Shown: one piece after another, positions 31,092 through 61,200 of the stretch
How positions within the stretch are numbered: position 1 is the first letter of the stretch
How the letters are laid out: each line of letters starts with the position of its first letter
Assembly (NCBI RefSeq): GCF_032854445.1
Contig: NC_088295.1
Span: 15,735,385 to 15,799,384, forward strand
Length of the DNA stretch: 64,000 bases
Direction of reading: 5' to 3'
From: Liolophura sinensis
Lineage: Eukaryota; Mollusca; Polyplacophora; Chitonida; Chitonidae
Notes under the pieces: generated by a model
What the model was told of the DNA's origin: nothing
Database searches by the model: none
What the model saw: only the letters and a program-made list of their open reading frames with translations
Made by a program: the position numbers and the translations under genes

Positions 31092-31226
31092 TCAGACTGG
31101 TGCCTCTCTGTGCTTCCCCCAGCCATGGAAACACTTGATGAACTTCGGATGTTCCTTGTGTTTCATGGCCAGGAGAAGTTTCCTGGGCTTGTTTGGCTGT
31201 TTACTTCTCACGTTCTGGATGTATAC
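31092..31226 (-). CDS. FLII: FLII terminal exon
   Basis: The acceptor TATTACAG is followed by [16 protein letters not shown] and the end [13 protein letters not shown], then TGA at 31094-31092. It matches the C-terminal tail of FLII (VYIQHMRSK in vertebrates). Starts in phase 0. Confidence 0.95.
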   Translation of the reverse strand, partial: VYIQNVRSKQPNKPRKLLLAMKHKEHPKFIKCFHGWGKHREAPV

Positions 31227-34200: not shown

Positions 34201-37200
34201 AGCTTGGGTTTTTGTGCAATGGGATCAAGGAAGATTGGTCCTATGCTAACTGAATTTCCTCATATTTATTAAGATAATACATATGTATGCTGGGGTTTTA
34301 ATGTCATACTTAACAATTCTCATAAGACAAAATGTTATATTATTAACAACAAAATAACATTACCTGTACGCATCTTGTGGCTATAGGACTGCCATTAGCA
34401 CGCAGCTGGAAGAGTGACACCTGCGGCTTCTCAGCTGGCTCCCCTGGCTTCACACGTTTACCATCAAACACCACAAACTTTCGCTTGAAGTGAGACAAAA
34501 ACTTCAGGTTTTCCTGCTGCTGGTGCATGCGAACAACTTCCAATTTATCTCCAAACAAAGATTCAAACTTCTTTTGTAAACTGCAAAACATAATCATTAT
34601 TTATCTGAATTAAATCAAACTTTAAGTCAGCTTTTCTCCCTTTTGTCTGCTAAAAACTTCACTGACTTACATGAATGTTTGAAGATTCATTAATCAGTTG
34701 GAACACTAAAAAGCTAAACATCAACTGCAACAACAACAAAAATTCTGAATTCATCTATTCACAACAACAGCAACACTCCAGCAGTCTATTTTATACAGAA
34801 CGTATTTCACGATGTTTGAAACTGCAGGCATTTGAATGCTGCCATTAGCTAACTGTTAAGCCATGTCTATACACTTACCTGAATGTAAAAGTGAGCCATC
34901 CCATGTTGCTGGCGTTGCGCCCCTGCCAGAAGTACACTGTACACTTGATTTCGTCCTCTGGGGGGTCATCTTCATCCTCCTCCTCACCTTCAGGTAACTC
35001 TGGGACCACCCAGTACCGACACAGAAACACATAGCAGTCCTCACTGTGGAACTGACCTGTGTACAACAACAACAACCCCTATGATAACAGGTAGTGGTAC
35101 AACAGACAAGTGCCAATATAGGCAAAGCTGAGTAAAATACTTGTAATTTACAGGAATGCTATAAAAGAAAATACCTAATTCTTCGTCTGGAAGACGGACA
35201 AACTTTCTGCCCTCCAGAACAAAAGCTTCCATCCCATCCAGGTCTTCATTCCATTCCTCCACCAGTTGATCCTGTAGCCAGAAAATAATGACGCACATGG
35301 CTAAGACTTGTCAAAGAGTGAGTGAGCGAGTGCTTGGGGTTTAACGTCGTACTCAACAATTTTTCAGTCACGATGACGACGAAGGAATCCTTAGGGTGAA
35401 TGTAATGTGCCTCCTTGTCGCAGGACGGATTTCCACCGCTCTTTTATCTAGTGACGACTTACCGAACGCAAGTAAGCAGCCCCGCCCGAGCTATTATACT
35501 GATACGGGTCAACCAGTTGTTGCACTATCCCCTTCATGCTGAACGCCAAGCGAGGAAGTTACAACTTCCTCTTTTAAAGTCTTAAGTGTGACTCGATCAA
35601 GGATTGATCCTGGATCTACCGGTCCCGAAGTGGACACTTGTCAAAGAAATAAACTTTCACAGGACAAAGATTTGAAAAAAACAAAATACTAAAGAAATGG
35701 CCAACAACATAAAACAAACAAGACGTGGTGAATAAGGAGGAATATTTTAATGAAAACTTCGTCAAGAAGGTAAAGCAGAGGACAGAAAGAAGGGTATTAA
35801 AAACTGTGAGAAGAGCAAAGTGTCTTCATCACATTGTTATACTGTATGAAAGAGCATGCATATACATGTACTGTATTCTCACATCCACCTGTATTAAAGA
35901 TTTCATGGTGAAGAGAGTCACTTCTCATTACTACCTACCTAAAATGACTGCCACAATATATTCACAGGCTTCTCAGCTAACCTATCTGTACTACGTAAGT
36001 GAATCCCCAAATTATTTCTTAACTAAATTAGCTCAAATTTTTTTAAAGGTGGCTTTAGCTAAAAACCATGAACTGTGTGTACTTACAGCTTCTTCGGCTG
36101 ACATGGCAGGCTGTCTAGGCATGAAAAGTGCAGATAAGTCAGTCTTCATCTTGTCACGTTCCATGATCACCTGTGGAGTATAATTCCGGTACATGTGTTT
36201 AGCGATTTTACAGATATTTCCCATCAACATGAACCATTGAAGTTTACAATGCACACAATGAAAATCAGGATTAAAATAGCAATGACTGTGAGATTTGCAA
36301 AACACGCTCCCAAGTGGTGAGGGAGGGAGCTTTTATTAACACTGAGTTGACAAATGTGTTTAAGTAGTTCTCACATATTCTCACCAGTCATTTCATAGGT
36401 TTTATTGTTAACCTGTAATTTGGGTACAAATGTTTTATTTTGTATACGTGTTAGCCTTACCTTCATATCAGCGCCTCTTCTGGACACAGACTCCGCTGTC
36501 CTGGTAAAGTCCACAGCAATCACATCGTCCCAGCCGAAGAACTTTGTCTTGAACACCTGACACTCTGTCCTGTACACACCAGTAAAGAAGTAACAATGTT
36601 TCATGTCATCAAATGATTTACAATCAACAAAATAGACTCTTCTCAGCAAGGGTTAAGGAAATCAAACGATTTTTTGACTCTTAAGAAAAATATGACCAAA
36701 ATGTTAAAATGTCTACTCAATTTGTGACCACTACACCAAGTTTCCTGTACCAGACTGAGGTTAGCAGTTTTGACATACATCTTGATTGGTAGCTCTCAAC
36801 CCATACAAGATGGTTTCCTTTGATTCACATGTCAAAAAAGTCACAAAACCTGCTGTGGAATGACGATAATCCTCCATAAAAGTAAAATACAAAGTACAGC
36901 GTCTGTTCTCTTGGCAAGCAAGTTTGAAGCTAACAGTATAAACATGCAATGCAATTGAAAACAGAAGATTTCTAGCACAATAGATTTGACTCCTCAAATG
37001 GTGAAACTACATGTAATTGGTTATGTTAAACACTGAGTTGACATCACCTACAGAAGGTGATAGAGATACCCCTATTTTAGGATGCTACTGTATCCTCACC
37101 CTTCCAGGCATCGTGTGACAGAGGTAAAGCTGGGCCTGTCAATCATTCCTAACAGCTCCTGTGACAGCTTGAGTGCTGCTGCCCTTACCAGACGCATCGA

Positions 37201-40200
37201 CTTCTTCCCAATCCTGTTAACAACCAAGTGGAGTAGTACATGACCGCCTGGGTAAAACTTACTGTACATCTTACAATAACCAGGATAACTGTAGGAGGCA
37301 TATAGATGTAAACGTCAGCTCAATACAGAATAAATTAAACCATTTACCTTAACATGGATTCTAACAAATGAAAGAGATGTGACAGCCATAAATTTAGCTA
37401 TTTACGATAATGAACACATTTGCAGGGCATCAACAGTGGATCATTCCCCTATTGTGTCACTGAGCTTTACTAACCCTAAGCTCAATAAATCCAGTACATT
37501 TTCTGATCAAACCACTGACATTTATCTTTACATTCTTTCCAATACAAAAGACAATAAGTCGTGAATTTTGTAATTCACTGTAATTAATATACACACAGTG
37601 CATCAACAACAGAACATGTCCCTTGTGTCAGATGTGCTTTACACGTACAATGTACATGTATGCAAACCTTGAGGTCAATACAAGTAGTACTTGAGAAATC
37701 ACCTGCAACATTTACTTGTGTCCTAAAATTGATTCTATTACATACAGAAAGTTGTATATGTTGCAATCTGCTGTAATTAATATGCACGCATAGCATCAAC
37801 AATGGAAAACCTCTCTCATGCCATTGTGCTTTACACAAAAATATACTCATAATGTATCGTTGATAAAGACTGCACTTACCAGACAAATATATCAGAAAAG
37901 CAATCAAGAATGTAAACACTTTTGGTATCCAACAGTGACTGAGTTAACTTTCCCTTTGGAACTTCAACTGAAAAAAAAAAACAAAAAAAAAATAAACACC
38001 AAATAAACCACTATATATTGGTATATTGGAAGAATGGGATCCCTATTGTAATCGTTCTGTTTTTTCTTCTTATTATTATAATTATTATTTTTTTTTCACC
38101 GACTTTGTCAGCAGGGAAACTCCTACACCGTTCAACATATAAGTCTCAAATTTTGCTCATATATTCTGGCGGTGAATATCTCAGGACAAATTCTCCATTT
38201 TTTTTTCTATGTCACGTGGTTCGGCCACCATATTGAATTTTGTGTAAAACCTTTAAAAATGTGATTCTCAAGAACCACAGAACGGATTGTTTTCAAATTT
38301 GACATGCAGCTAGAAGGTCACGAGTTACAAAAAGTTTGCAGAAATGCTTGACTTTCGGTCAAAACTCTGGAAGCTTGCCATTGGTCGAAATTGTGACGTC
38401 ACAAAAAGTTCTGAAATGTCAATTGTTCTCAACGTATTCTGATGTATCTTGAGCTGCTGATTTCCGAATTTATTTTTTGCATATCTATGTAACTTTTTGA
38501 GATATAAGCAAAAAACTAAAAAAAAGTTACATAATTTCAATGACCTGTAACTCGAGAACTATGGGAGCTAGAAATATGCAACCTGCACCAAATTGTAGCC
38601 CAAGACATGCTCTTTTGAGCATTCGCCAACGGATTTGAGCTACGATCAATAGTTTTCTCGCCAGAAGCGTTTAAATGACAACACCATTTTTTGTTTAGAA
38701 AAAGATGGGAATCCTATTGCTTTAACATGGAGTTAGATGGGGACTGGACTGGGTTTATAGTATTTGACCTGATGCTTTCTGCTACACTGTCCGTGATCTC
38801 CCAAAACGGTTGTAGGATGACATTCAGCTATACAGTACTCTATTAGATGGTGTAGAATTCTAAGTACAACAGCAAACGACGTGGACCTGTAAAAGTTAGC
38901 TTTGTTTTGCGCAGGCCTTGTCTTCTTTACCATACGCTAACCAGGCCAGGGTGATTAACAGACATCGCCATGTGCCGTGGTTCAGGTGTTGACTTTCTGA
39001 CAACGGCCTAGATATTAGTAGAGCAGTGAGTCTGTTCGTGGCAGGTCATGGATTGAGACATGAAAGTACAAACTTTGATTTTTCTTCTTTCTTTCTTTTC
39101 TCTTACCGCTGACGCCTGTCAGTCATGTCAGAGTTCGATCCCAGCTTAGCCAATTTGTCAGGCGATGAAAATGTTGTCAATTTCAAGGTTTTAAGTAGGC
39201 TGCTAGGCGTAGTTGGATGTTCTGATGATGAATCTGGTGGTTTTTTCCTTTCTCCGACGCACAGTTTTGTCGCCAATTGCTATGAAAGTGCGAAAAAGTG
39301 CAATTTTCGCCCATATTTGGAAGTCACGTGACACAAAACTGCTGCAGCTGTGGAGCTGAAAATGACTGAGTACAAAGGGCTATATGGGTACTGTAGGCGT
39401 TCAGAAAACCATGGAAATATGTCAATAAATGTGGGAGTTCCAGTGCTTCAAATATTGTCCAAAGGCCGACTTGCTGTATTTGGCACATTGATGTCCCCAT
39501 GTTATATGATGCATTTTAAATGCATTTGCAACTAGGATGAAGGCACGAACATTGTAAGCATGCTACCCAACGGAGTTTGACGTCCTGATCATGAATCGGG
39601 ACTTATTTCTTTCCGGCGATGTATAGTTTTGCCGCAAATTGCGATCAAAACGCGAAAAAGCGCTAATCCCACCATATCTGGAGGTCTGGTGAGAGAAAAC
39701 CGTTACAGCTGTAAAGCTGAACATCACTGAGTGCAAAGCACTACACACGTACTCTATGTGTGCTGAAAATCTTCAATCTGTGTCAACATCCACAGGACAT
39801 GAAGGGGAAAATGTCATTGATCCGATCCGGGATCCCGGCCTAGGATCTGTTGTTCGCAGATCCATTCTAGTTTTCTTATTGAATGGATTGTGCTTTGAGC
39901 TGTGTTGAAGAATATTTGATGCAACATGCAGGTAAATGAAAAAGTTGAAAACAACCTGTATACAATATACAGTGTGTACATATCAAAAAGACAGTTTGTA
40001 CCTTGTGGTAGTTCCAAGTATCCCATACCAAGGCCAACTTTGTACAACTTTGGCTCTCTTGTCACAAAGTTGTCAGGCACAGTTTCCTGAAACAAAAGAC
40101 AAAACCTCTTCTTTATGCATAGATTTAATAAATTAGTATTTAATGCTCTAAATCAATCATCTGTCGTGGGAAGGTCTGCCAGCAATCTCCCACCATAATG

Positions 40201-43200
40201 CTGGTCGCCGTCACATCAGTGAAATATTCTTGAATACAACGTAAAACACCAATCAAATAAATAAATAAATCATGTACACAGCACTGCATGGTCAGGTTTA
40301 TGGCTGTGGGACACTTGCTAATGCTTTAGATAACTCACACATATTTGTTTATTTGATTTACATTTACACCATGCTAAAGAATATTTCATTTATGCAACAG
40401 CGACCAGCTTTATGATGGCGGAAAGCAGGCAGAGCAAGGCGAAAACCCAAACTATCCGCAGGTTGCTGTCAGACCTTCCCATATATAAGCCAAGAGGAAG
40501 CCAGTATAAGAATCATTCAGAAATCCACACAAAAGGCTTGTTAATCTGCAACCACTGGAATAGTGATACTTTCTGTACTAGCACAGAATCACTGCCCATG
40601 ACCAACTACTCTCTTTCTGACCTCTCACCTTTATGTCAAGGTCATCTGGAGGTCCTCCTAGCTCCTTCCAGAAGTCTGTCGTCTCCTGGTACTGTAACAT
40701 GGTGGTGATCTCTGCACAAGCTTTCCTCTCATGTTTGTCCACCTTCTCAGCCAGTAACCTAAAAACACCCACAATCGAAGTTGATTTCTATTTTGTCATA
40801 TCATATTTTTTGTCAATCATTTCCCAGGAAAGAAAATAGACACCACTAGTTTGGCCTAAATGTAACTTATGGCTCTACTTAATTTCATCAGTAAACATGC
40901 TAGCCACAAAAACAGAATACCTGTGACTGAATTTACTTATTTATTTTCTTGTTCAAAATAAGTCAAAAATGTTTTACATGTTCTTATATGATGGAGGTCA
41001 GTTTTAAGCGTGGGGAATACATAGGTACCAGAACGCCAAGGTAAACCACCAACCTTTGCTGGTTTACCCAGATATCACAATCCACATAGCACCCACAGCC
41101 ATGACTTACCTGGTCTTTGTTTTGGTGACACCTTTGATCCACACAACACCCACAGCCATGACTTACCTGGTCTTTGTTTTGGTGACACCTTTGATCCACA
41201 CAACACCCACAGCCATGATTTACCTGGTCTTTGTTTTAATGACACTCCTTTTTCCACATAACGTCCACAGCTGTGACTTACCTGGTCTTTGTTTTGGTGA
41301 CACCTTTGGACATCTTTCCCACCCAGACAAACAGCTTCATGCCCACGTCCAAGAAGAACACATAGCGTCTATCCAGAGAAGACGGGGATACTGCCACCTG
41401 TACACACAGACCGACAGAAAAGATGACACATCAAACATCTGTCCAGTGCGGCTGAGGATACTGTCATCTGTACACATGAACTGACAGGCAGACAGAAAAC
41501 ATGATACACATACAGTCTGCCCAGTGAGGCCGAGGATACTGTCAACTGTACACATGAACTGACAGGCAGACAGAAAACATGATACACATACAGTCTGCCC
41601 TTTGAGGCCGAGGATACTGTCATCTGTACACATGAACTGACAGGCAGACAGAAAACATGATACACATACAGTCTGCCCAGTGAGGCCGAGGATACTGTCA
41701 ACTGTACACATGGACTGACCGACGGACAAAAAACATGATACACATACAGTCTGCCCTTTGAGGCCGAGGATACTGTCATCTGTACACATGAACTGACAGG
41801 CAGACAGAAAACATGATACACATACAGTCTGCCCAGTGAGGCCGAGGATACTGTCAACTGTACACATGGACTGACCGACGGACAGAAAACATGATACACA
41901 TACAGTCTGCCCTTTGAGGCCAAGGATACTGTCAACTGTACACATGAACTGACAGGCAGACAGAAAACATGATACACATACAGTCTGCCCTTTGAGGCCG
42001 AGGATACTGTCATCTGTACACATGAACTGACAGGCAGACAGAAAACATCATATGTAGAGTGTCTGTGGTATAGTTACTTCATACTTAAGTGTAACAAAAC
42101 AAATCCAGATGCACTAAAATACCTTACTGCAACATGATTTTTGTCCTAAAATTTTTTACATGATTAAACAGATTTCAAATTGATTTGTAAAGTGTGAAGT
42201 AAACTGTACTGAAATAATTTATAAATTTAAAACTGAAAGCGCAGTGTGATTAGCTGAGCTGAGTTTCCAGCAACAACTTACCCGTTCCAGGTGAATACGT
42301 TGAGAGCCACTTGCCCTGTATAACTTTGCATCATAAACCTGTTCAGAAAGGAAATCACACAAGGTAATTATTTTGCACATTAGCAGTGGTGATTACATGT
42401 TCAAATGGATAATGGAATTAGTATGCATGTTAACAACATCTGATAAAACCACCCAGACACAAGCAGTTTTACCAGCTTCAATACCAAAATACATTGATCA
42501 AAAAAGACCAGTAACATACACATATTACATTTAGCTTTGTGTTTGTGTCAATCTTAATAAGTCTATCATTTAATGCAAAAATACACATGAATGAACTTGT
42601 ATTAATTAACAATTATTACAGCTGAACATCAGGTACTGCTAACTTACTGTATCTTCTACTGTGTAAAACCCACTTGATGTTCTACCTCCCTCGATGTATG
42701 AAACTTCGTTATCGAAAAGGTCGAGGAATTCATCGTCTTCATCGTTCATTTCCTGTCTAGAGGTACGAGATTCTGCACCCAGTAGGTTCCTCAGATTGAC
42801 AGCATGTATGGCTGCACACGCCTTCTTATCCAGCTGAAGTCAGCATTTAATTAATTCAACTTTAGCAAAAGCTTATCCCACCAAGTCTGCTATTTCTGTT
42901 ATTATATTCTGCAAATGTATACACCAAAGCTTGTCCGTGTGTTTCAAAGATGGTTTCATCAGTGAACAGGTACATGGCATCTATCAATCATTAGTATACA
43001 CTACATGTTACGGTCATCTGGAAATGTGCTCAGATGAACAAACGCATGTTAGACTCACAGTGTAAACTAAAGAATAGTATCCATTCTACAGGCTTTTGAA
43101 ATACAGTACTGTCCAAAAAACCACCCCAATGCCAATAACAAAACAGACTATCATTGACGGTACTTCATTAAAATATACATGTGAAATTCAAATACATCAA

Positions 43201-46200
43201 AGAAGAAATCTCAACTATTCCACATAACGAATATAACCTGTATGTCAAAGTTATTACATACAATGTAATGGCACAACACTATAGCAGCACCCTCTGTACT
43301 GTTACATTACATGTCAAACAGGGTACTGATCCACTGACCTAAACACACTATCCACCACTTACCGTAGCCTTTGCACCTATCCAGTAATAAATCTGCCAAT
43401 TCAGACTGTTCGACTCATCAATATATGTGTTCAGTATGATGTAACAATCAGCTTCATAGAATTTCCCCAGAAAACCTACAAAACAGAAAACTCCAATATA
43501 GCAATGGTTTATGTTCAAGTTCCAAGTACCTGGCATCAATGCCTGTGCAATCTGAATTCTATGCACAACTCACAATTATAACATACATCACATCAGGTAT
43601 TTCAAATATCTCAGTACACCACATATTATTTCACTGAAGTTTACTATTGTGCTCAAGAGGTTTTCACTTATACCATGGCGATACCAGTTTATGGATGGAG
43701 AAAACTGTAAACCCTAGTGTACACCAGCGACCATTACAGGTACCTGATAAACCTCCTGACAGAAAGCTGCAGCCAAACACAGCCTGCAATTACAGATACT
43801 TGGGAGTACAAACACACAGATGTCCAGACGTGTCAAACAACTTACTGTCATCCACAATAATGGGTAAAAAGTTTTCAATTTCCCAGGTAGTAATGCCTGT
43901 TTAAAAAAATAAGCACATATTATTAGCAGGAAAACAGCAACACAGCCACCAAACATTGGAGCTTTAATCTTACAGAGTACAAGGATGATTCAATTTAGAT
44001 GTTTTAGTCACTCGACTTTACAGAATAGAATATATTCATATGTTGGTTGTGATGACTGACAAAAAGAACTGCTTCATCTACATGTACGTACATGGAGAAC
44101 AGGTCACTCAACAAATGTCAATCTATACACAACACAGGAAACACAAGTAAAGGTTGAGGACAAAGCATTCACATGTATATCTAAAGAAGTTTCACAGGGC
44201 TATTTGGATTAACAAGAAGATACAAGTATGGATAGGTTTCACAATGCTAGTGATGAATTAAACGACAAAGTACACTTTGTACATGATGACTTATTCACAA
44301 GCCTTCGGAAGAGATGACTGAAGAAGTCACTTCTGAAAGCTTGTGAATAAATACATCATGTACTTAGTGTGTGAACAATAAAGCCATAAATGATCATGTA
44401 CATTAAGCCAAGAATGAAATGTAAATCCTTGATAGTAGATGAGCGCTCATATCTGAGTTATCTCTCCTGAGTCTACTTTACCTGGAATCTGTCCAACAGC
44501 TGCATCAAATATGTCACTGTAATCTAGCTCTGGCTTGTTCAGATTCTCATCCCATCTCTTTGGTCTGTGAGGTAGATTATATGAACATATTATAAAGTGT
44601 TACTATCTCACCTGCTTAATACATGTACAGACATTACATGTGTTCACTGTTGTAGTGTCAGATATGCTAAAGCTACATATATATATATAAATCAAATACA
44701 AAGAGCCCCCACACCACCGAAGATTATATTTATTTGTTTGTTTGTTTGCTGACAACCTTACATTCTTTCATCACTATTTTAGTCATATGATCTATTTAGA
44801 CCTATGATCTATATTAATATGTTTAATTTGTTCTTAACAGAATCTCACATCAAAGACATCAGGCAACATCCCACCCAGTAAATGCACACTTATAACACGC
44901 TGAGATAAGCACAGAGGCAGTCCTCAAATGAAAATTTGAAATCCAATTTAACACTTATTCTTTGTTTTTAGGAGTTAAAATTTGGAACATCTAATTCATT
45001 TTCTGTTAAGACAAATCTATCACAACTACAACATCTTATATTTAGGGCAGTGATTTATGCTTAATACTAGAATCAAAACTGGCTTTATACTAAGAACCTT
45101 ATACTACGAAAAGTACCAAAACTGCATACATGTACTGAATGAACAAGGATCTTGGTCTACCTGGAATTTGTCCTTAGTTTTAAATGTAGGTTTAACAAAA
45201 AATCATATACAAAATAAATGAAGCATAAATTTTCAAACAAACTTAAGTTACATCTCTATGTGCCTTAAAAATGTGAAATTTCAAATCACAGGTGGCATGG
45301 ATACGTAGACATGTTACCTTAGTGGTTCTCTCTGTTCTTCTTCTATGGCTGTGGCAATACCAGCAGCTTTGTCTTTGGCCACATCTCTCATACCCTGAAA
45401 ACAGAAAAGAAATCATTTTAATAATCTGAAAAATAATGTAATTCTTATGCATATAATTTACAATAAAAATTTCAATTAACCCTTTAATTGATGTTTTAAC
45501 TTCCATTTCACTGCAAAATTTCAAGAGGCCATCTTTTTTCTACAGTATGTATGTTGTAAGTTCAACACAAACCTTTAAGACTTTTTCACTTTCTTGCCCA
45601 TCTCTTCGGCGACGCAGTCTCAGTTTTCTAGCTATGGGGTCTTTATGAACTAAAACAAAAACAACACATAGCTGTGATTAATACTGTCCATGCAAACATA
45701 TGAACATCTACAAAATGTACAAAGAAAGAGAAAATTCTTAGCACAGCAAATATTCTAGCTCCAATGCAAGTGTAAATATTACATACATGTACACTGAATA
45801 CACCAAACTTCGTAAAGCATGATAGTTGTTGTCACTGACGCTTTCAATTATTCTCTTGTATGTTAATAGAGAAAATCTCAAATAAGTTTCTATAACATAT
45901 AAAATATCTTAACAAGGCAGAAGTGCTTGTTTATAGCAAGTGTAAAAATGTGGATAGAAATACATCACCAAGGAAATAAAAAAAAAGCAAACCAGCCAAA
46001 CAGTGAAGAAAAGACAGAAAATATGGAAACATGTTGATGACATAATTGTGCACACCCACACAGACGAAAAGAAAACCCCCTAACAGTGCATCACACAGAA
46101 AAGTCTTCACACACACTTTATGTGACGTTGCAGAGTGTGAAGGACAAACACACTAAAGTGCTGTAAAAGTGTGTTTTCCATACATATTACACAATCGTGG

Positions 46201-49200
46201 TTCAACAGATTACCCTGCAGTCTTCAGACACAAAGCCCTTAGTCTAGTAGAGAAAGGAATGATCTGCAAACTACTTGTACACTTACTGTAAAAAACAGTT
46301 AGGTAAGCAAGTTCACAGCATTTATATTCATCACTAAATACATGTATGTAAAACTATATCAACTGCAAGGAGGTTTTTAAGCCAAAACACAATAGTGTAT
46401 AAAATCAGACCATATCTGGAGCAGTTATTTTGCATGGAAACCAAAGCTTGACACACCAACAGACAGACAGACCCAAATTAATATCCTTCACCTTTTCACA
46501 GAAGAATGGAATAATTACGGCATACAATTACATGTACATGTTATACAATTTTTCAGATTTTAGATCTTTGGAGGATGATTCATTTCCTGATAATTTACAT
46601 TCTTTTAACCAGAAATCACAAGAAAATATTCATGTCAACTTGAGAATATGTTTCAAAACCAACATTTCTTAAAAGTGCAACAAATGCTGCTTGGATCCCC
46701 AAGTTTATCTTCCCACAGAGCTTACTGCATTGTGCAAATAAAAGGAAATAAGTAAGCGTGGAATAGAATCACATTCCCATTATAAAGATTAACACTGTCG
46801 GTTGTGGTTACTGATTTTGTTACTAAAGACAAAAAGCAACATTACAGAAAGACTGACGGTTTTGGCTGGATAATTACTGTTCAAGAAAACAGCAGATAAA
46901 ATTTTAAGAAAAAATGTTTAAAAAGCATAAAAAATATGTTTTGCTGTATTATAGCCTACAATCACACTGGATTGATCACATCCAACTGTACATTCTCAGT
47001 CCTATGATTCAAAAGCTCTCAGAATTTGCTATGGTCCTGTCAATCCTTGGAATCATCTAGTTTCACTACAAATTTACTTGCAATATTGTACATACATACA
47101 TGTAGATACCAATGGTTTATTCTGGCACAGTCAGTCTGCGCTAAAAGCATGTCAACATACAGACAAGTACATGCACATATAGTAACTGTATAAATCAATA
47201 AGTTTTAATCAATATATCGGCAATTAAGTGAAATGAGGGAAACTCTTCACCTAAACATAATATTACACAAGGGAAGAGTGTGTGAGCTAGTTACAGTGTA
47301 TGCCTCCCCTACAGTGTACATGTGTGTGTATATATCATCATGATGGAAACCTGGGACAATAGTGTTGACTGTCAAATGCTTCTCATATTCATCATATTGA
47401 ACTTATCATATTATGTAGGTGTTTCCCTAATACAAGCTTCTAGTACTGAAATTCTGCATTGTTGGTACACTGGCTGTCGGCTTGGCAGAAGCTAAAATAC
47501 TAACAGTAAAAACAAAGGTTAAATTCTGTAAATATATACGTTTATTTACATGATTACAAATGACAAATTTGAAATCCAAAACATTACTATCACATAACAC
47601 TAACAAAATAATTTAACAGCAATCAGAAACATTTATCAGTAAAAGACTTTTTAACACATTCCTTGAGTCACTGTCAATCATCAAGTGTACCTTGGGTAAA
47701 AACCATTATCAGTATATGCATTTTAAAATATTAAAAAATATGTCACACAGTCCCAGAATTTTACCGAAAATGGCTAAACAAATATATTTGAAGTGATACA
47801 ATAATGTTCAATTTTATTTATCACATAAGCATATTTAAATCATATAGGCTAATATATAATATACTAATAGATGGTTACTATATTTGTACATACATGTACA
47901 TGGACAGGTATGTTCATGTCAAATATTATTCAGTACAGGTTGTTCTCATAGCATAAATTATAGTCACGTGCAACGAGACATACTTCAGATGGACGTATAT
48001 CATGTTTTGTGTATAATGATGATAAGTATACAATCTTCCAGTATACTGTTATATTGATTTCACTTTTAAAGTTTAGCGTTTTACAAATGACACATCTTGT
48101 TTGATTTTGACAGATTCAGCCACCTTATAGAGCCACTTAAGAGTTTGTTTTGTTTATGAAGATTGATTAATTCCTATCAGAGACACTGGATGCTGGCATG
48201 AAAAGTATCATCATAAAAAAGCGCATATGTACCGACCAAACTCGAGGTTAAATACAGCACACCTCTACATGTAAGTAATGTTTCATATTTATTACTGACT
48301 ATGACTTCACCCTTGAGAACATGCAGGTCAGTAAGACTGAGCATACATAATGCCATAGACCTCAAATAATAGGCTCCACTTTAAAGGTCTGATACAACAA
48401 GCCAGGGCTTAGAGAAAAGAATGGGAGCAATCCTCAGCTGGAGGTCTGATAAATCATAGTGAACAGGTGGAATCAATTTCTACATTCTGGCATGTCTCAG
48501 CCAACATAAATATATTAGTAAATATGTATGCATAAGAAGAACTGTTCAGTTACACCTTCTCTACATCGAGCTGTGAAGTTCATTTCAAATAACATGTTCC
48601 TTCAATTCAAATTCACTGAAAAGAACTCAACAGTTGGACATTGAAGATAAATTGCAATATACATGTACATACAATTTCCAAAACACATAGAAGTTCTGCT
48701 TTCCCTTATCTTGCTTCTCCACATCAGAAGAAAACATTTTATACCGCTATATATACACAGCACTACAAACTACAGATATACAGTGTGCCCATCCTCAGAG
48801 ACCTAATCACATGAAACATATTTTTTCTACAATAATCTTCATCATATAGTAAGATAAGAAAAGTAATATAATGGGTTTAACTGAATAAAGAATAATACAT
48901 GTGTATCCAAAACTTTATCAACCAGATGTTACACATACTATGAAGATATAAGAAATAAAACACTTTTTATAAGACAGTGTAAATACAAATTAGATGTAGC
49001 ATTTAAAACTTTTAACATCATAACTTTTTCATGCTGAAGCTAAACATTCTTCATATCTACTTGTGTCATTTGCTTGAATCACTGATAAAAACACACACGC
49101 GCACTCCATGCACACACAATAGCACATTGCCTCTGGCTCAAGTATGTACTATGCAATATCACATCATATTTATTTATACATGTATGTGGGAGCTTGTTCA

Positions 49201-52200
49201 TCATTACATGTACTTAACAAAGTATGAAGGGCACAAGTATACAGGTTACAACGGCATGGGGTCATTGGGTATTAAAGTAAACTAGATACTGTAATTCTTC
49301 AATATTTTCAAATGTTGCAAGGTGTTTATTGAAGCATATTCTGAAGGCATTATTCTGTGTAGACTGATAAAATTATACTTTTTGCAAAGCCCTGAAATTG
49401 GCCAACCAACAAATGTAGTTTTGTCTCCAAAATCTAATTATAAATGTGAATAATTTGCACTGAAAGTTGCTCTTTCATATGCAAAAAGGTTGAGGAAATA
49501 GGACAGTCTTTTACCAATGATTCAGTCATTAACACCATTTCAGTATGTATCGATATACAGCTCTCGACTCACAAACATCTACTCAACTGCTATTATTAAA
49601 GCAGCATCTTGTATGAGTATGCATCAATTCTGCTATAATATTCATTTCAAAACATATTTATACACAAGTACACAGTGATTTTCACTTCAAAGTACTTTAA
49701 CTCTTCTGAAAGAGAGCCATAACACTCTTTTCAAACTGGCCGTGGTCACATTTGATCAACATGTTTTATAGATATTTTTAATAGTAGCTGACAATTTATA
49801 AGGAGGATATCTATTCTAACCTAGACCTATTCACCAAGAGAGAATATGCAAATATAATGGTCATATCAACTACAAATAACCCTGCCCTCTCTGAGTATTT
49901 TAGTGCTCATGGGTTACAAGTCGTCCCCTTTTGTAAGGGGAGTAAGTGAGAATAAATGGGGTCACATCATAAATCTATCAGGTCTGTGAATTAGTAAAAT
50001 GACATTCCCCAACTGCAATGCCTGGCTAGGTGTTTACATGTGTAACCAGGTAGTCATTGTACAATGATATACAAGTATACAGGTGGGTAGACATGCCATT
50101 AACACTTGTAGTGACATGGAGCATGGAACAGGTCCAAGGTTACTTTGATCAAATGACCTGCAAGTACAGGTATTCCATTCCATATAATCATTAAATATTA
50201 TAAATTCATTGACCAGGTTGAAGAACGCATCGTTTATTAATGTAAACATCTAATTAACCTGTTTGTGTCAGGAACATTTCTTGATCTCTACAATGGTACC
50301 TGGCTCTTTCTGCAATCACAGCACACTTCATGGCTATCAAATTCCTCTATATCCCGGTTACAAGACCAATACAATTAGGCATGGCCACATAAATTTACCA
50401 TTACTTAAATGTCATTCCAAACATGGCTCATGTTGTGCAAGTGTGTCTATCTTACTATCAGTAGGTAACGTGACACCGTAGTGACTGGATAAGTCATATT
50501 GGAATTCCTTTAGTTTGTTCTGATTTATTTATTTGATTGTTCCTTCACGCAATACTAAAAAATTTGTCACATATATGACAGAGGTCAGTTTTATAGGTGA
50601 AGCAAATCAGATGTGCCTAGGGTAAACCAATGACGTTTGGCAAGTTACTGACAAACTTTCTCCAATGTGTGGTACAGATAAGCACAGTTATGGTGGAAGA
50701 CAAGAAACGTATACAGCTCAGTCAGCAGTAGAAAAGACAGGAAAATCTAGCAAGGCCTGGTATCTAACATTGAAACAAAACAACAAAACATGTGAAAGTA
50801 CATGTACAGGGTCATTTTGAATTCTGATACACGGTACAGATATGTACTTAAAAGCAATAGCATAAACATTTGAAATGCATAGTATACACAAGATAATCTC
50901 ATGTTTCATGTACCTGTGTCTTTCAGTTGTACCATGGAACCAGTTATTAAACATGCTTGGTTCAATACATATACAAAGATATATGCATTATATCTAAGAT
51001 ACTAAAACGCACTAACAGGTGGCAATAGTGTTAATGTTCTGAACAACACAATGCACATGTGTATATGATGACCTGTGTGTACAGTTGTAACAATAACAGG
51101 TGGCAGTGTCAAGCAACCATTACCTGGCACTACTGAAGCACTTCATTCCGACTTCAATGGCACCAATACAGATAAAAGACTGAGGTCACTCAAGGGCCAA
51201 AACTGTCTATTATATGGAAAACATGTTATTCAAAACAAGTCTAACCAGAAATATGACATGTATGTCTATTCCAACAGAGCACTCAAATAAAGCTAAAGCA
51301 GTTGTCTGGTTTGAAAGTGTCATTCTATTGACTCTCAGGCAATGTATCATACCCACCACAGCTGTCTTCAGTCACTTACGAACCATAGCTGCAAACAGTA
51401 GTTTATTCTCGATTCCATTAACACAAAAAACTCTTTACATCAATCAACCATGAAAAAAATAAACAAATCTTCTTCTACAGACGTGCTACAAAGAAAAGTC
51501 AGTATGTTGTAATAGATTTGAACCACATTGTTTCAAGAATATGCATTTCTAAAATGGTTTGTCCTTTTGCCTAGTGTTCATAAACAAACCCTTTCACATG
51601 CCTACCTTCATTCTCTGATGACTCAAATTCCAAATCAATATCACACAGTTGTTGTTGTTGCAACATCATTTCAGCACGATTAAGGTAATGTCTAGTCACA
51701 GCTTTGCATTTTCCATCTCTGTTCCCGGATGGAACTTTCCCTCTGGTTTTCCACTGCTTCTGTGCCCTTGGTACAAGAAGACTTTTGAAATCAGAATTCC
51801 CTGTCACGGGTAGAACAAGTTCTGGGTTATCGTTTGCTTGCTCCAGAGTAATTGGGATTTGGATACCCAAATTCCGTTCCCTCTGCTGGCACTTTGCTGC
51901 CCTGAGAGCCACAGCGAGTGGGTGGCAACTTCTCACCAAGGCTTTTGTTGTCTCCTCACTTTCAGATGTAGAGACGTCCTTGAATGAAGATTGAACACTG
52001 CTATTTTCTTCATGCATCCTTCTATTAAGATCTTCCATACAGGACTTGCTGACCGACACACTTGGTTCAATTCCCCCACCATCTGCGATCACACCTGGAG
52101 ATAGAGCACCTGGTCTTCCGGCACTCACAAACATTCTACCTGGACCAGAAGTATTTATGTTGGAATTTCCGTGTGCAGGTTCCACAGTGCCAGTTTCTGC

Positions 52201-55200
52201 ATGTAGAGACTGGCTTTCAGGGTCATAATGACTTGTTTGTAATGCCGATGTGCTTTTGCGAGCTGCTTGCAGCTTCTGGTCATACATTTTACGTAAAACA
52301 GCAGAACCTGGTCGTTCTTGGCTTTTCACAGCAGCTGCGTTACCGTTGTTGGCTCTAGATGACGATACCAATGGTGAATGGTGAAATCCATGATTTCTTC
52401 CTGAGGACGCATGGTATCGAGGAGATCCAACAGTTCTAGATTTTGTTGGTAAATTTTGCGATGGTTTCGGTGAGAGTTTATGTAAATTTGGTCTGTTTGG
52501 TTTCATGGACAAGTCAGAAGTACTAAATGATTTAGCTTTGAACAAAGTTTTTGCACTGTTTTGGGTATTCCCTTCAATGTTATCTTTGGAAATGGTTTCT
52601 CTGTGACTTTTACTTGCCACTGGCCAGGCAGACACTGATATTCTTGGAGAATTGCCGCTTCGATTAAAAGACTCTGGTTTTTGCCAGGACTGCCTGGGGG
52701 AAGCTTTTCTTGCAACAGGTCTAAAATCTGACCTGTTACCTGCTTGATGACCCCCTAGTTGATGAATGCCATTTTGAGAATGTGACGTTTTCAAATCCAG
52801 GGCAGAGCTATAATGCAAGGTCCCTTTGGACATGCCTTCTGTTAGTGAACTGCGAATTAAGCTTTCCTGACTTGTTGATACTGAACGCCTGGGGCTCATA
52901 GAGCTCTGTTGTGATCTGCCAGTTTTTGGCCATACTGATAATGAATTCCAACTTCTGTCATCTAGGGACATTGTTTTCTTCTTTTCTGATAAAATATGAT
53001 TAGCTGTTCTAGAAGGGCCTTTTTGGTTATAATCCAAACTCTGGTGCACATGTACTGGTGTAGGACTGATACTTCTGACAGGTCGTGGAATACGCGATTT
53101 ACTTGGACGCTTTGCCCTGATGCCAGTGGATGTTAGTTGTTCAGATTCAACTTCAGCACGAACACTTAATGACCCATTTCCTTGTTTCCCAGACTCTTCT
53201 GGACTGGCTTCATCTGGAGGTTTGTAGATCACATAAACTGGCTCCTCTAGCACCATGTATTTGCACTCCGTGCTGCTGTGGATAGGGAAAGCCTTCAGAG
53301 GTTTGTCCCTCTGTTGGACAGGCTGCTCTGGCCTGGATTGGGGTTTTCTTAGTCGGAAGTTACCCGGATTATGAGAGGAGTTCACAGTGTTTAAGAGGCT
53401 GTGAGGAGTTTCACCAAAGGAAACAGTTTTCTTAGATTTTCTCTCCTCCACACTGAAGTTAGCTCTTGGTCTGTTCTTGGAATCAGTGAAATGAGCTGAC
53501 TGTGGCCTTACTGATTTCTCACACTGCACACTTTCTAATGTCTTTGAGTTTGTGGAAGAAAACCCAGGTGTTTTGTCTGAATCTCTCGTTTTATGCTCAG
53601 ATGAAATTTCCTGAAAAGTATTTTTTCGTTCCTTTACACCATCTATAGGTTTTGACCTTTGCACATCAGAAACTTTAGAATGCACAAATACTGATGTCTG
53701 TGGCTCTGGATTGTTTATGAATTTCAACAGTTTATCATGAAGAAAGTTCAAACCCACTGATGCAGAATTTGATCTATCCCGTTTCTTGAGTGGTCGACTC
53801 TTTGGCCTTGTGTTCAGCGCTTCCAGTGACTGTGACCTGACTGGTATTATTTCATTTGCAGCTGTCCTGCTTTTTGAAATATTGTGACTGTCTGTTTTAA
53901 CCTCGTGATCTGGTTTTACCCTATTCTCTGGCACCTGGGCTTTCATACATGTGCATGTAGGACTTGTTTCCATCACCTTGGGGGTGCACTGGCCTTCTGA
54001 ATCAGCAGGATGAATTATCACTGTGGGAATAGATTTGGTTATTGGCTTCATTTGCTCAGAGCTATTGTCAATGGAGTTTGGATTACGATTTGTTGGATGC
54101 GTGTATTGTTCTACACTGTTGACCACAGGTGGCCTGACACTGTAATGCACACTGTCCTTGTATCCCTGATATCCCTGATGTGGGGGCTGTTTACCCTCCC
54201 TTACTGAGGTAGACAAGTGTCCCCGCTCACTAAATATACTGTACTGGGATGACAATTCATCCGTCATTTCAGAAGAGCACCTGCTCAAGCTTCTGACACT
54301 ACTGGCCCTGTGTCGTAGCTGTTGAATGGCATCCATTGCTTGTATATCTTCAACTGACTGAGGTTTGAAAATAGATATATCATTTTGGAGACTTTGACCA
54401 TTCGAGTTCACAAGAATTTTACCCTGTGAGAGGGAGTTCAAAGACCAAAACTTGCGGACTGGTCTAGCACTTGCGTTCACTACTGACTCCATGTCACTTT
54501 CAACAGCACTTTCAGTGTCATAGCATGATTCAGGTTTCATCTCCTGATTGGGGGCTAAAAAGGGTTTAATGTTCTCCAAGTCAGAAAAATCATTTTCTCC
54601 TTGATCTGGTAAGTGTTTCACCTGTGCATTGACATCTGGTCCATGAGACTGGAACGCATTTCCTAGACTGTGCAATGAAGTGGTGTCCGGCTGAGACCTT
54701 CCCTGGACTTGACGGCTTAATGCTCCTAACCGATTCACAGAGTTTTCTGAATTCTGGTTATCAACACATTTTAAATGTTTTTCTGATTGGGGCCTTTGGT
54801 TACAATCATATGTTCTTGTTTCTGGAGAGTTAATTACTCTGATGGTTTTCTGATTTACATGTTCAAATGTATTACCTGTAATAAGAAATCTACCAGACAT
54901 AGAAACTGGTCCTTCCTCACAATCAAGTTTACCACAAGTGGAGATTGGCATTTCGTTGCAATCATATCTGTTACAAACGGGACTTTCCTGGCTATCATAT
55001 CCAGCAGAAACTGGCCTTTTATGACTATCACATATGGCAAAAACTGGTCTTTCCTGACAGATAGAAATTGGCCTTTCCTGGCTATCATATGTGTAAGAAA
55101 CTGGACTTTTCTGGCTATCATATCTAGCAGAAACTGGCCATTCTTGATTATCACATCTAGCAGAAACTGACCTTTTTTGGCCATTATATCTAGCAGAAAC

Positions 55201-58200
55201 TGACCTTTCACGACTATCACGTCTAGAAGAAACTTGTCTTTCCTGACTAATAGAAATTGACCTTTCCTGGCTATCATATCTACCAGACACTGGCCTTTCC
55301 TGGCTATCATATCTACCAGAAACTGGCCTTTCATGGCTGTCATGTCTAGTATCTGATCTTTGCTGACTATCATATCCAGCAGAATCTGCACTTTCATGGC
55401 TATCGTATCTAGCAGAAACTGGCTTTTCTTGGCTATCATGTCTGCCAGATATTGGCCTTTTCTGGCTATCATATCTAGCAGATATTGGCCTTTTCTGGCT
55501 ATCATATCTAGCAGATACTGGCCTTTCCTTACTATCATATCTAGCAGATATTGGCCTTTTCTGGCTATCATATCTAGCAGAAACAGGCCTTTCCTGGCTA
55601 TCATATCTATCAGATATTGGCATTTCTTGACTATTGTATCTAGCAGATGCAGGCCATTCCTGGTTATCATCTCTACCAGACATTGGCCTTTCATGGCTAT
55701 CACGTCTAACAGAAACTGGTCTTTCCTGGCTATCATATCTAGCAGAAACAGGCCTTTCCTGGCTTTTATATCTATTAGATATTGGCCTTTCCTTACTATC
55801 ATATCTAACAGAGATTGGCCTTTTCTGGCTATCATATCTAGCAGAAACAGGCCTTTCATGGTTATCATATCCACCAGAAATTGGCCTTTCATGGCCATCA
55901 TGTCTAACAGAAACAGGCCTTTCCTGGCTATCATATCTAGCAGAAACAGGCCTTTCCTCGCTATCATATCTACCAGACATTGGCCTTTCATGGCCATCAT
56001 GTCTAACAAAAACAGGCCTTTCCAGGCTTCCATATCTAGCAGAATCAGGTCTTTCCTGGCTATCATATCTACCAGACATTGGTCTTTCATGTCCATCATA
56101 TCTAACAGAAACTGGCCTCTCCTGGCTATCATATCTAGCAGAAACAGGCCTTTCCTCACTATCATATCTACCAGAAATTGGCATTTCACAGCTATTATGT
56201 GCAGGAGAAACTGGCCTTTCCTGGCTATTATATTTACCAGACAATGGTCTATCCTCGTTATAATATCTAGCAGAAACAGATCCTTCCTGTCTACCATTTC
56301 TAGCAGAAATTTGCCTTTCCTGGCTATCATATCTATCAGAAACCGGTCTTTTCTTACTATTATATCCATAAGAAAGTTGGTTTGCGTGACTGTCAGAGGT
56401 AGTATTGATAAATTTTTCCTGCCTGTTATGATTACAGGGTGAGTGTCTTTCCTGACTATCATATCTAGAGTAAACTGGTCTTTCCTGGTTAATGAATCTT
56501 GAAGACACTGACTTTTCATTTTGCCCATTATCCTTAACCAGAAAGTATGATGGAACAACATTTTCAATGTCAGCGTGAACGTAAGCCTTGCTTACATGCA
56601 TGTGTGTCATTTTCTCTTTCTCAAGTGACATCTGAACTGTTTTTGCCCACTGCCTGACGTCCTTCAAAATGTATGAGCTGCACGGCATATGGTAATTGGC
56701 ACTGTCCACACTGCTGGAATCACTTGACAAATGCTCGCGTTGAGTGACTGTGGACTTCTGAAGCTGACTGGGCTCTACATTCCTAGTCCAAGAAGCTCTT
56801 TTTCTATGGGTTTTCTTTTTGGAGTCACAAAGCTGATAAGAAGCAGAAGAAGACACAGATGCAGTCAATTCCACATCAGACCATGTCCGCCGGATGTCAG
56901 ACCGCTTCCTCTCACGAATACTTAATTCCCTGACTCGATACTCTGAATTTCTCTGCACATCAGAAGCTGTGGTAACCAGTCTGCGAATCTTACTTAACAC
57001 ACTTTTATTGTCATATCTGTCTATTGGCACAATGTCCGATACAGAATCGTTTCCTGGGTTTGGTGGCAAGGAAAAATTAGTTCCGCTTGGCTCATTACTC
57101 TTGTTAGCTTTGACATGAACCATGAAGTGCTGGTTACCCATCACAGAAGGGGATGTACAAGCACTGCTAACAGGTAGCACAGATTCTGGAGAAACAGAGG
57201 GCAAGTCATCAGCAGAAACAGCTTTGCCACAGGCTTCCATGTGCAGAGATCTACTTGAATTTAAACTGACATTCGCTTTATGAGAGTTTGTCACTGTATC
57301 AATGAATTCAGCTGGGGATTTTAAGAGATTATTTTTACTTATCTTATCAGATTGATTTTGGTGGTTGTCAGTGTTTGAGGATATATGCTGTGTCTGCATG
57401 TGGTCAGGCTGTGATTGGCATTCCTGGTAAACTAAGCTGTCTTTGTCCTTTATAGTAGTAATCTTCTCATGAACATTGGCTGCATTGTCACTTTGGCCAC
57501 CAGCAGCTGCTGGAGCTTCGTAGCATGTAACCACTGCTGTAGCAAAGCTTTTCTTTGAACTCGATTCAGAATTTGAGCTCTGTTTAGGTTCACTGTCACT
57601 TTGTTTTTGCCTTGGAGACAATGCTGCTGAGGTCTGGCCATTCACCACATCAGCCGGTGATACAAATGTATCCACAGTCCCACAAATGCCTTCACTATGT
57701 CTAGGCTGACTATCAGGGTTAAGTTTCTTTGAAAGTTTAGCCTGTAAGTTTCTTGAGATTGCCTCCATGTCCACCTGACCAGGGAACACAAAGTGTCTGG
57801 GAGATGACTGGCTTTGAGTCGAGTATCCTGAAGTTTCAGAACTAGAGTGAAGGGTATGGGCAGAGTCAGAGGTAGTTGTCTGCCCAGGGAAGGCCCAGGG
57901 TACAGAGGATGGAGTTGGAGTATACAATTTCAAAGTTTTCTGCAACTCAGTAGCTAGCTGTGAAACGCTTGTCTGTGTTAATACTTTAGGTTTATGGTTA
58001 CCTCTGGCTTTTTGCTCCTTTCCTACATCAGTGGCATTTTCAAACACACCTTTGATGGCAAGCAACTTGCCACTGTTTTGTGTCTTTTCCTTGCTAAGAG
58101 AACGTCTTGGACTGACTTGTTTGGGTGTCTCACTATCATCTCCCAATGTTGTCTCAAAAATACCCTTCACATTCTCGACACTTTCTCTGCCACGCTGAAG

Positions 58201-61200
58201 TTTGATGGATCGCCGAAGATGCTCAGAATTATCAATTGCTTTTGGTTCACTAATACTGTCATTTACTTCCTTTTCAAAGATGCTTATCACATTCTGTTTA
58301 AACCTTGATCCACTTCTGATTTTCCTAACAGATGTTGCTTGGTCTTCCATGCTTTTGTTCAATTTTGAAATCATCTGTGATATTTGGTCCTGTTTGAGCC
58401 TTGGTGTGGAATTTTCAGTGTTCTCAGAAGACTTCCTAGGGGAATTTACTGATTTCTCAAACTTTTCAGATCTTTCCTTGACAGAAAAACTTCTCTGGAG
58501 AGAGGTCCGTACTGGGATGTCATTTAAGGAGTTGGCTGATTCTGCTGAGGTATTATCTATCTTCCCATGGATCAGTGAGGTGGAAGAATCACGATTAGAG
58601 CTTTTGTGCTCTTTCAAAGTGGCCTCCTTGGAAAAATTCCTGAACTCTCTTTCCAGCTCATCCCCATCCCAGGAGTCTGATTCAACTCCATCTTCATCCT
58701 GATCATCTTCTATCAACTGGCTGAACTGTAGGCTGAGGTCCTCACTGCTCATCTTCAGTATATAATGGTGTAGTCCAGCACAAGGGAACCTTCACTATGG
58801 TGAAAATGAAGCAATTCACTCATATCATGTGTAGGATTCCTGGAATTTTGTATCCACATTATTTTGTCACGGTTTTAAGCAACAAAAAGTCCCCCTTATA
58901 AGGACGGACTTTGGCACACTTTCTCAGCTTACTTTCAATCTGACACCAAATCAGTCTTGGATACAAAGTAGAATGTATCTGCCTGTAAATTCCACCATGT
59001 CCACAGCGTCAAGTATCCATTTAAGAACTAAAGATTAGTAAACAATTCAGAAGTGAAAAAAACATGAAACCGATACTGGCTGTAAAATGAAAATTCATGA
59101 AAGCCTTCTGACTGCTATGTGTCCACAGCCTATCCCTGTCATATTGTCATCATGGTAGATTCTCCTCTGAAACTGCTCAGATTATGAATTATTAAGAGTC
59201 CTGCCTGGGCTGTATTGACAACGTCTTGGTGAATCCCTGTTGTGTGGTACATTGTCATCTTAGCTAACTGACAATCCACTTTGTAGATCCTCCACATAAA
59301 TATTCACACAAGGCATGTCATCACCTCCTTGGAAAGTTAATTCTGTTTTTGTTTTTTTTTTCCATGTAGGCTTGGTACTGTACATTGTGCAAGGCTCAAA
59401 GTTAGGGTATCATTCTACTTAACCAAGGAATACCCAGCACAAATAGCATGCTTCTACTGTAGTGTCAGCTTGTCCACAGAAAGCCATATACACAGCCATG
59501 AAACTTTGCTGTAATAAAAAGCTAGCACTGGCAATGTGTCAAAAAACTATAGTCCCTGTTACCTAGCCTGCACTTATGTGACCAGGATTTAAAGGCCCCT
59601 GCAGATTGGAGACACCTGATTATCATGGGGCAAACAAGCAATCCAGTGAACTGAGCGGTTCCCCAGTGGGAGCTGTTCCACTGGCCCAGGGGGACAAGTC
59701 TGAGCATGAACAGTCACTCTATCTCCATTGGCGACTTCACCACTGTCTTGGTGGGCACTGCTTGTCTTGGGGGTTTCAATTACTGGCCACATAGGTGCCA
59801 AGACAGACTACTACTATTCTAATCCCTTCTCCCATTTGGACAGATCCCAAATTTGGCAAATATTGTATTTACAAGGAGCCATCAGTGTGTCTCTCTCACT
59901 CATGAGCTGACTACAGCTGTTATGAACACATACAGGTAATGATTCATTGACTTCACCCAACATAACCCAGCACTACACAGGATAATGTTAAGTCAAGGCA
60001 GCTAGGGTTAAACTGTAATTGATTCACAGGGACTAGAGACTACATATATAGTGGTCAACCACTTCTGTGGTTTATAGCACAAGGGTGGGAAAAAAATACA
60101 GAAATCAAGGGATATTAGCACACCATTGTTACATCACAGCCACTCATTTGTGACAAACAATATTACCATACAACATTATATTGCCTGAAATTATTAGTGT
60201 TATTGTGATAATTGTACTGTGAAGGCTGATGATGTACTATCTGATACATAGCAACAAGTTTCCATTATGAGGAAAATGACGAACCACAACTTAATGGATA
60301 TTAAAGAACATCCACGTGTAAACAAAGCTCATATATTAAAAATACATGCCAGCAAATAGGCAGCATGTTTAACGTAATATGCACTGGTTCACAAGAAGAG
60401 CCATCAATCGTTTCAGCATGGAAAATTTGAGAGAGCCCTCCATTTAATATCCCACTAGCTTTCAAATAAGCACACAGGGTCACATAATTATAAAAAGAAG
60501 TAATAGTCTGTGTACACATGTATTTAATGACAGCTAGTGGATCAACTCAACTGTCAATATGCACCATGCCTGATCTGTCAAAATACACCTAAAATCCTCT
60601 GTAATGGCTTTCAATTCGAGTGAGGACAGGTCACTTAATTCATATTTACACACCATCAAATACACCTGTACCAGCCATCAGGTATGAACTATTATGACAG
60701 ACGTGGTCTGCAGTTCAAATGACACACTCTGTGAAGACCTTGTAGACATGTCTATAAGCCAGAGATCAAAGTAAATATCTTTACCTTGTCAACAAGGGTA
60801 CTGTTTATGGTGTCCGGTGACAAGGAAGAATTTAATACCACCGGAATTGTGTATATAACTATCAAATCTTATTTTGATACACGGCAACTAAATATCCACC
60901 ATATGTACAACAACTTCACACTAATTAGTTAGTTTACGAACTACATGTACAGGGGTGTGAATGACCATTTTCAAACTTTATACATTGTACATATGATGGG
61001 TTACAACAGAAATATATTACAGACTATAAATCTTCTGTAGCTGCCTGAAAACTGAAGTTGAGTAATCTCAGCATAACCCCGTTCAGCCATACACTATCCA
61101 TTCACATACCTGAATTAATACAAAGTATTCACAAGTGTTCAGTGAAGTAGGTCCTAAAAATGTGGGGTTTTTTTTTCACCGAATATCATTCAGTATACAT

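What the first reader, a model, noticed from the sequence alone, without database searches (positions are those of the whole stretch)
51606..58752. Giant alternative first exon may swap the LRR domain of Flightless-1 for a 2,382-residue disordered N-terminus
Seen: a single 7.1 kb open exon on the FLII strand lies in the one oversized FLII intron, between the LRR exon and the basic-linker exon. Its donor (AATGAAG|GTAGGC) leaves one base, as the LRR exon's donor (CCAG|GTGAGT) does, and the shared acceptor exon needs exactly that. Its ATG follows an in-frame stop, so it acts as a start, not as an insertion into the LRR form. Known: gelsolin-family supervillin joins a long disordered N-terminus to gelsolin repeats, while FLII is described with LRRs. 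Inference: one locus gives two mutually exclusive N-termini on a common gelsolin body, one of about 3,198 residues. I know of no description of this arrangement for FLII.
Basis: partly seen in the sequence, partly recalled or inferred. Interest (0 to 1): 0.92.

Follow-up and report, generated by a model that had tools for sequence, protein, structure and literature searches.

The report
Giant orphan exon inside chiton Flightless-1
A chiton carries an intact 7.2-kb protein-coding stretch, for which no relatives were found, inside the largest intron of its Flightless-1 actin-regulator gene; it could splice in frame onto that gene's actin-binding half or be a separate nested gene, and sequence alone does not settle which.

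Summary
The window is from the chiton Liolophura sinensis: a held FLII protein of that species (1,236 aa) maps to it and its flank residue for residue in 34 exons. An intact 2,393-codon frame lies on the FLII strand in the 17,898-bp intron (next largest 7,290) between the last LRR-side exon and the basic-linker exon. The chance of such an open frame is about 1e-67. It is single-copy, disordered by composition and without homologs in the searches made. The inferred splice is possible: the donor at 51606 is phase 1, as the FLII acceptor needs, and would give a 3,200-aa gelsolin protein without the LRR. It is not shown. The donor is average on a general matrix but weak on one from this gene's own 33 donors, and a poly(A) signal about 164 nt after the ORF's own stop allows a nested gene. 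No held protein covering the ORF was found in the length ranges searched, although FLII 'isoform X2' from this contig is held. I lean slightly to the alternative first exon (about 0.5) over a nested gene (about 0.38). RNA reads would decide.

The parts
51607..58752 (-). giant ORF up to the proposed donor: 2,382 residues, S-rich, disordered by composition
51571..51606 (-). continuation of the ORF past the donor: 11 residues (the first from a codon split by the donor) and the stop codon TAG (51573-51571)
51601..51606 (-). proposed 5' splice site GTAGGC, phase 1
   Evidence: score 4.97 on a recalled general matrix, 0.32 on a matrix from FLII's own donors
54946..56366 (-). 33-bp x 43.7 minisatellite inside the open frame, coding RPVSARYDSQE-like units
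   Evidence: TRF
58792..58797 (-). in-frame stops TAG TGA upstream of the ATG
58753..58794 (-). 42-nt leader after a possible splice acceptor (TTTTCACCATAG|TGAAGG, exon start 58794)
   Evidence: score 3.85, within the FLII acceptor range 1.32-7.4; chance of one scoring at least 3.8 in 42 nt about 0.12, from the rate
51402..51407 (-). AATAAA about 164 nt after the ORF's stop: possible poly(A) signal of a nested gene
63548..63704 (-). FLII exon 12, last LRR-side exon, donor phase 1
63914..63998 (-). FLII exon 11 (LRR); exons 1-10 lie beyond the window end
45573..45649 (-). FLII exon 13, basic linker VHKDPIARKLRLRRRRDG, acceptor phase 1 (proposed shared acceptor)
31095..45394 (-). FLII exons 14-34 (rest of the linker and the gelsolin body)
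   Evidence: PF00626 hits
45650..63547 (-). the 17,898-bp FLII intron that holds the giant ORF

Best explanation
A real protein-coding giant exon, restricted in expression, acts as an alternative first coding exon of FLII. A promoter inside the 17.9-kb intron (or a short 5' UTR exon spliced to 58794) starts a transcript whose 7.1-kb exon splices from 51606 to 45649. That puts a 2,382-residue disordered, RxxS-rich N-terminus in place of the LRR domain on the unchanged basic linker and gelsolin body (3,200 aa in all). Likely effect: the gelsolin half keeps its actin activity but loses LRR partners, and gains a long, multiply phosphorylatable tether. Shown: the ORF, its position, its phases and its single copy. 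Inferred: promoter, splice, expression and function.
For: Donor in the one phase that works, at the LRR/linker boundary. The frame stays open 11 codons past the donor; after the 33 true FLII donors it does so for 1-62 codons, median 10. A donor scoring this well falls in the last 36 nt in phase 1 by chance with p 0.004-0.04 on the five matrices (post hoc). 45649 is the first acceptor downstream that is known to be used; 19 other acceptor-like sites scoring at least 3.8 lie before it and give runs of 1-48 codons to a stop, which does not by itself set them apart from 45649, whose own run is 36 codons and whose true donor scores only 0.9. In the rest of the intron the best coding-like segment scores 10.9, on the other strand.
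Against: No transcript evidence. On a matrix from FLII's 33 donors the site is weak: 360 non-FLII GTs on this strand of the window score as high, so one in 36 nt has p of about 0.18, or 0.06 with phase. AATAAA about 164 nt after the stop with a moderately GT-rich stretch beyond. No protein joining the ORF to the FLII body is among the 120 listed of 610 hits of 1,054-3,355 aa, and none covering the ORF was found. All listed FLII relatives but P0024 carry the LRR family PF23598.
Confidence: 0.5

Rival explanations
1. A nested separate gene on the same strand: a gene with one coding exon and its own promoter that ends at the stop 51571 and is polyadenylated after AATAAA 51407. It makes an orphan 2,393-residue disordered protein unrelated to FLII in function.
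For: Complete ATG-to-stop frame; AATAAA about 164 nt after the stop followed by a GT-rich stretch; no high-scoring further coding segment in the intron; GC3 0.35 against 0.53 in FLII; donor weak on the gene's own matrix.
Against: AATAAA within 164 nt has a chance of about 0.13 at the window rate, and a GT-rich stretch as good follows 17% of random places; the site ranks 11th of 56 AATAAA by this measure. A phase-1 donor this near the end is not expected. Genes with a single coding exon of this length are uncommon (general knowledge). No such protein was found.
Confidence: 0.38
2. A partial cassette inside the LRR form: FLII's LRR-side exon splices to an internal acceptor of the ORF and leaves through 51606, inserting a long disordered spacer between LRR and gelsolin.
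For: Twenty of the 41 acceptor-like sites scoring at least 2.8 in the exon span are in the fitting phase, the best 57185 at 5.6.
Against: The best coding score of the ORF is in about its first 44 codons, which such splicing would leave out; no acceptor in the fitting phase lies between the stop and the ATG; such sites are common by chance.
Confidence: 0.05
3. A recently born or dying ORF, open by history and not expressed to any effect.
For: No homolog found, no paralog, no held protein found; only mild signs of selection inside the repeat (dN/dS-like 0.80); codon score far below that of FLII (-0.02 vs 0.32).
Against: 2,393 codons without a stop would not persist for long without selection; the true frame scores best of the three in 16 of 24 blocks of 100 codons.
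Confidence: 0.07

Closest known systems
Flightless-1 (FLII)
   Same: The surrounding gene is FLII itself: 1,236 of 1,236 residues of the L. sinensis isoform X2 map here.
   Different: The proposed form would lack the LRR; of the 120 listed relatives 119 carry the LRR family PF23598, P0024 does not (my reading; 490 further hits were not listed).
Supervillin / archvillin
   Same: Gelsolin superfamily; isoforms that differ in the N-terminal half through splicing (PMC6192639, passages seen). That its N-terminus is long and disordered and is followed by gelsolin repeats is recalled.
   Different: Supervillin ends in a villin headpiece (recalled); none of the five headpiece hits of this genome is at this locus, and two lie near gelsolin hits elsewhere (C1:19.1 Mb, C4:19.8 Mb). 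No sequence match to the ORF.
Giant exon of ankyrin-G
   Same: One exon of 7.8 kb used by some isoforms only, with a serine/threonine-rich part and a phosphorylation-linked serine (PMC5422562, passages seen).
   Different: There the giant exon is an internal one (recalled); here it would be a first coding exon that replaces a domain. No sequence relation was tested directly.
Nested genes in introns
   Same: A complete frame inside a host intron.
   Different: A phase-matched donor near its end is not part of that kind.

Membership tests
FLII gene | LRR N-terminus plus gelsolin-repeat body | tested here: met
   1,236 of 1,236 residues of P0001 mapped in 34 exons; LRR and gelsolin families listed for P0001; the number of gelsolin repeats was not counted
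FLII isoform (giant form) | transcript joining 51606 to 45649 | not testable with these tools
   no RNA reads available; phases agree
FLII isoform (giant form) | a held protein that joins the ORF to the gelsolin body | tested here: not met
   none among 120 listed of 610 hits of 1,054-3,355 aa; none of 1,310-4,168 aa or 607-1,932 aa; ranges follow from the tool's length rule
supervillin | sequence similarity of the N-terminus | tested here: not met
   no Pfam family above cut-off, no PDB match, no protein hit; no direct comparison with a supervillin was made
supervillin | C-terminal villin headpiece | tested here: not met
   the five VHP hits of the genome (25 of 25 candidates scored) are not at this locus
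giant alternative exon | single stretch of several kb with intact frame | tested here: met
   7,146 nt up to the donor
giant alternative exon | splice-competent donor in matching phase | tested here: inconclusive
   phase matches; strength depends on the matrix
nested gene | own stop and poly(A) signal | tested here: inconclusive
   present, but at chance-compatible levels

The most novel reading that the evidence does not exclude
FLII of this chiton has two mutually exclusive N-termini on one gelsolin body: the ancient LRR domain and a lineage-specific 2,382-residue disordered domain with an array of basophilic phosphorylation sites. One gene would thus yield an LRR form and a supervillin-like form.
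Probability: 0.45. Interest if true: 0.75.

Novelty: new variant of a known kind. Interest (0 to 1): 0.45.

Why it matters
If spliced, FLII would show how a conserved actin regulator can exchange a whole signalling domain for a giant disordered one by a single alternative exon, converging on the layout of supervillin. If nested, it is still an orphan protein of 2,393 residues in a conserved gene's intron that was not found among held proteins. Either way one of the larger coding stretches of this genome seems to be missing from the protein catalogue searched.

Tried and rejected
A cassette reading with an acceptor directly upstream of the ATG was considered and rejected: the AGs between the in-frame stop and the ATG do not give the phase that the LRR-side exon needs. 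A transposon or multicopy origin was rejected: the N part (9 of 9 candidates scored) and the C part (2 of 2) match only themselves in the 609-Mb genome; the full-length search hit elsewhere only within residues 742-1234, around the repeat, with just 20 of 784 candidates scored. Homologs: none at E <= 0.001 or <= 0.1; shorter proteins that hold only the N-terminal part were not searched. Short linear motifs: SxIP and RVxF one each, NLS-like one, SH3, WH2, LxxLL, PPxY and 14-3-3 none, all at or below the shuffle mean; only RxxS is enriched (80 vs 30.3, 0 of 300 shuffles as high, 57 of them in the repeat region). An AlphaFold2 model of the last 205 residues (one sequence) was of no use (mean pLDDT 33.5), so no fold search was made. 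The donor was first scored with a general matrix recalled from memory and looked strong; the matrix from FLII's own donors weakened it, and I report both. The acceptor score is a home-made one. Literature: ten searches; the six with flightless or FLII terms listed no paper on an alternative FLII N-terminus, judged by titles and abstract starts. The library is open-access only.

Full report
What the window is. A search with the FLII body returned, as best hit, 'protein flightless-1 homolog isoform X2 [Liolophura sinensis]' (P0001, 1,236 aa, from a contig of 96,433,062 bases, the length of the window's own contig C1). A spliced alignment of P0001 to the window plus adjacent genome gave 34 exons and 1,236 of 1,236 identical residues. 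The species is a chiton; a genome and five-tissue transcriptome paper exists under the name L. japonica, with a correction whose abstract start says the species had been believed to be L. japonica (PMC11068029, passages seen; PMC12441733, listing and outline only). That the genome of that paper is this one is inferred from the species and not tested.

The observation. In coordinates counted on beyond the window end, FLII runs on the minus strand from 81769 to 31095. Its 33 introns range from 118 to 17,898 bp; the largest, 63547-45650, separates the last LRR-side exon from the basic-linker exon, and the next are 7,290 and 3,828. In it lies an ATG-to-stop frame of 2,393 codons, 58752-51571. At its own base composition the chance of that many open codons is 10^-66.8. 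A 33-bp minisatellite of 43.7 copies (54946-56366) lies within the unbroken frame. Differences among the 33 eleven-codon units that my pattern cut out give a dN/dS-like ratio of 0.80, weak evidence of selection. The codon score of the true frame beats both other frames of that strand in 16 of 24 blocks of 100 codons (not in those starting at 301, 801, 901, 1001, 1101, 1901, 2001 and 2101) and lies well below that of FLII (-0.02 vs 0.32, the model being trained on FLII); GC3 is 0.35 against 0.53. So the ORF is coding, or was so recently, with an unusual make-up.

What the protein is. Serine 15.8%; by charge and hydropathy disordered as a whole, as are 82% of its 50-residue windows. RxxS sites: 80 against 30.3 in shuffles, 57 of them in the repeat region. 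No Pfam family reaches its cut-off, no solved structure matches, no protein of 1,310-4,168 aa matches the whole at E <= 0.001, none of 607-1,932 aa matches the last 1,104 residues at E <= 0.1. Proteins shorter than 1,310 aa that hold only the N-terminal part were not searched. In its own genome it is single-copy.

Does it join FLII? For: the donor TGAAG|GTAGGC leaves one base, as the LRR-side exon's does, and 45649 needs one. The frame closes 11 codons past the donor; the median after the 33 true FLII donors is 10. With a general donor matrix only 2 of 382 GTs in the ORF score at least 4.9, this being one of them. 45649 is the next acceptor known to be used. Nineteen other acceptor-like sites scoring at least 3.8 lie between; their runs to a stop (1-48 codons) do not by themselves rule them out as ends of a separate gene, since 45649 itself runs 36 codons. 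Against: with a matrix from FLII's own 33 donors the site ranks second lowest of 34, none of those donors having C at +6; 47 GTs in the ORF and 360 non-FLII GTs in the window then score as high, and the chance of one in the last 36 nt is about 0.18, 0.06 with phase. Mixed matrices give 0.004 to 0.04 with phase; all these values are post hoc. An AATAAA lies about 164 nt past the stop; it occurs 56 times on this strand of the window, so the chance is about 0.13, and 17% of random places have a GT-rich stretch as good. Neither 3' end is proven.

The held-protein test. One search admitted proteins of 1,054-3,355 aa and scored the FLII body: 610 passed, 120 were listed, lengths 1,103-1,533. Only P0001 matches at near-identity (98%; the next-ranked is 73%); no giant form appears among the 120, where it would be expected near the top. 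As the database holds FLII X2 from this contig, the giant protein seems not to have been annotated there. [quoted passage not shown] which RNA the held models used was not seen) and bears on both readings alike. P0001 stands for two member sequences; what isoform X1 is was not seen. That the database holds the whole L. sinensis proteome was not tested.

5' side. Two in-frame stops (58797-58792) end 39 nt before the ATG, so the ATG is start-like. An acceptor-like site at 58794 scores 3.85, within the range of FLII's acceptors (1.32-7.4); at the window rate one scoring at least 3.8 in 42 nt has a chance of about 0.12 (rate). It could receive a 5' UTR exon. If FLII's LRR-side exon used it, the frame would shift and stop after 17 codons (my reading). 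An insertion into the LRR form through deeper acceptors is possible but unsupported.

Function, by inference. In Drosophila FLII the isolated LRR does not bind actin, while the gelsolin domains cap barbed ends and inhibit filament growth (PMC7509490, passages seen). A form without the LRR would be expected to keep actin activity and lose LRR partners; the disordered RxxS array would be a phosphorylation-tuned tether. Ankyrin-G is a precedent for a giant exon used by some isoforms (PMC5422562, passages seen); supervillin for splice isoforms that differ in the N-terminal half of a gelsolin-superfamily protein (PMC6192639, passages seen). No sequence relation to either was found or directly tested.

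Verdict. Observation confirmed; interpretation possible, slightly favoured, unproven. The priors and likelihood ratios behind 0.5 versus 0.38 are my judgement.

Noticed in passing
41080-41308 (-): A 57-bp tandem repeat duplicates the end of an FLII exon with its donor, giving three donors of score 8.61 (41282, 41167, 41110) in a row.
   Followed up: no
41406-42052: A 78-bp x 8.3 minisatellite in another FLII intron; overlapping open frames of 228 and 214 codons there are probably not genes.
   Followed up: no
19107-24772 (+): CAP domain (in 19107-19463) and three ShK domains (in 22110-22559, 23136-23465, 24512-24772): probably a secreted CAP/ShK protein gene beyond the 3' end of FLII on the other strand.
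   Followed up: partly
58621-58752 (-): About the first 44 codons of the giant ORF have its best coding score, at the level of FLII exons, unlike the rest.
   Followed up: partly
P0024 (protein hit, Phthorimaea operculella): A 1,533-aa gelsolin-repeat protein without the LRR family and with many internal duplications; perhaps a misassembled or misannotated FLII.
   Followed up: no
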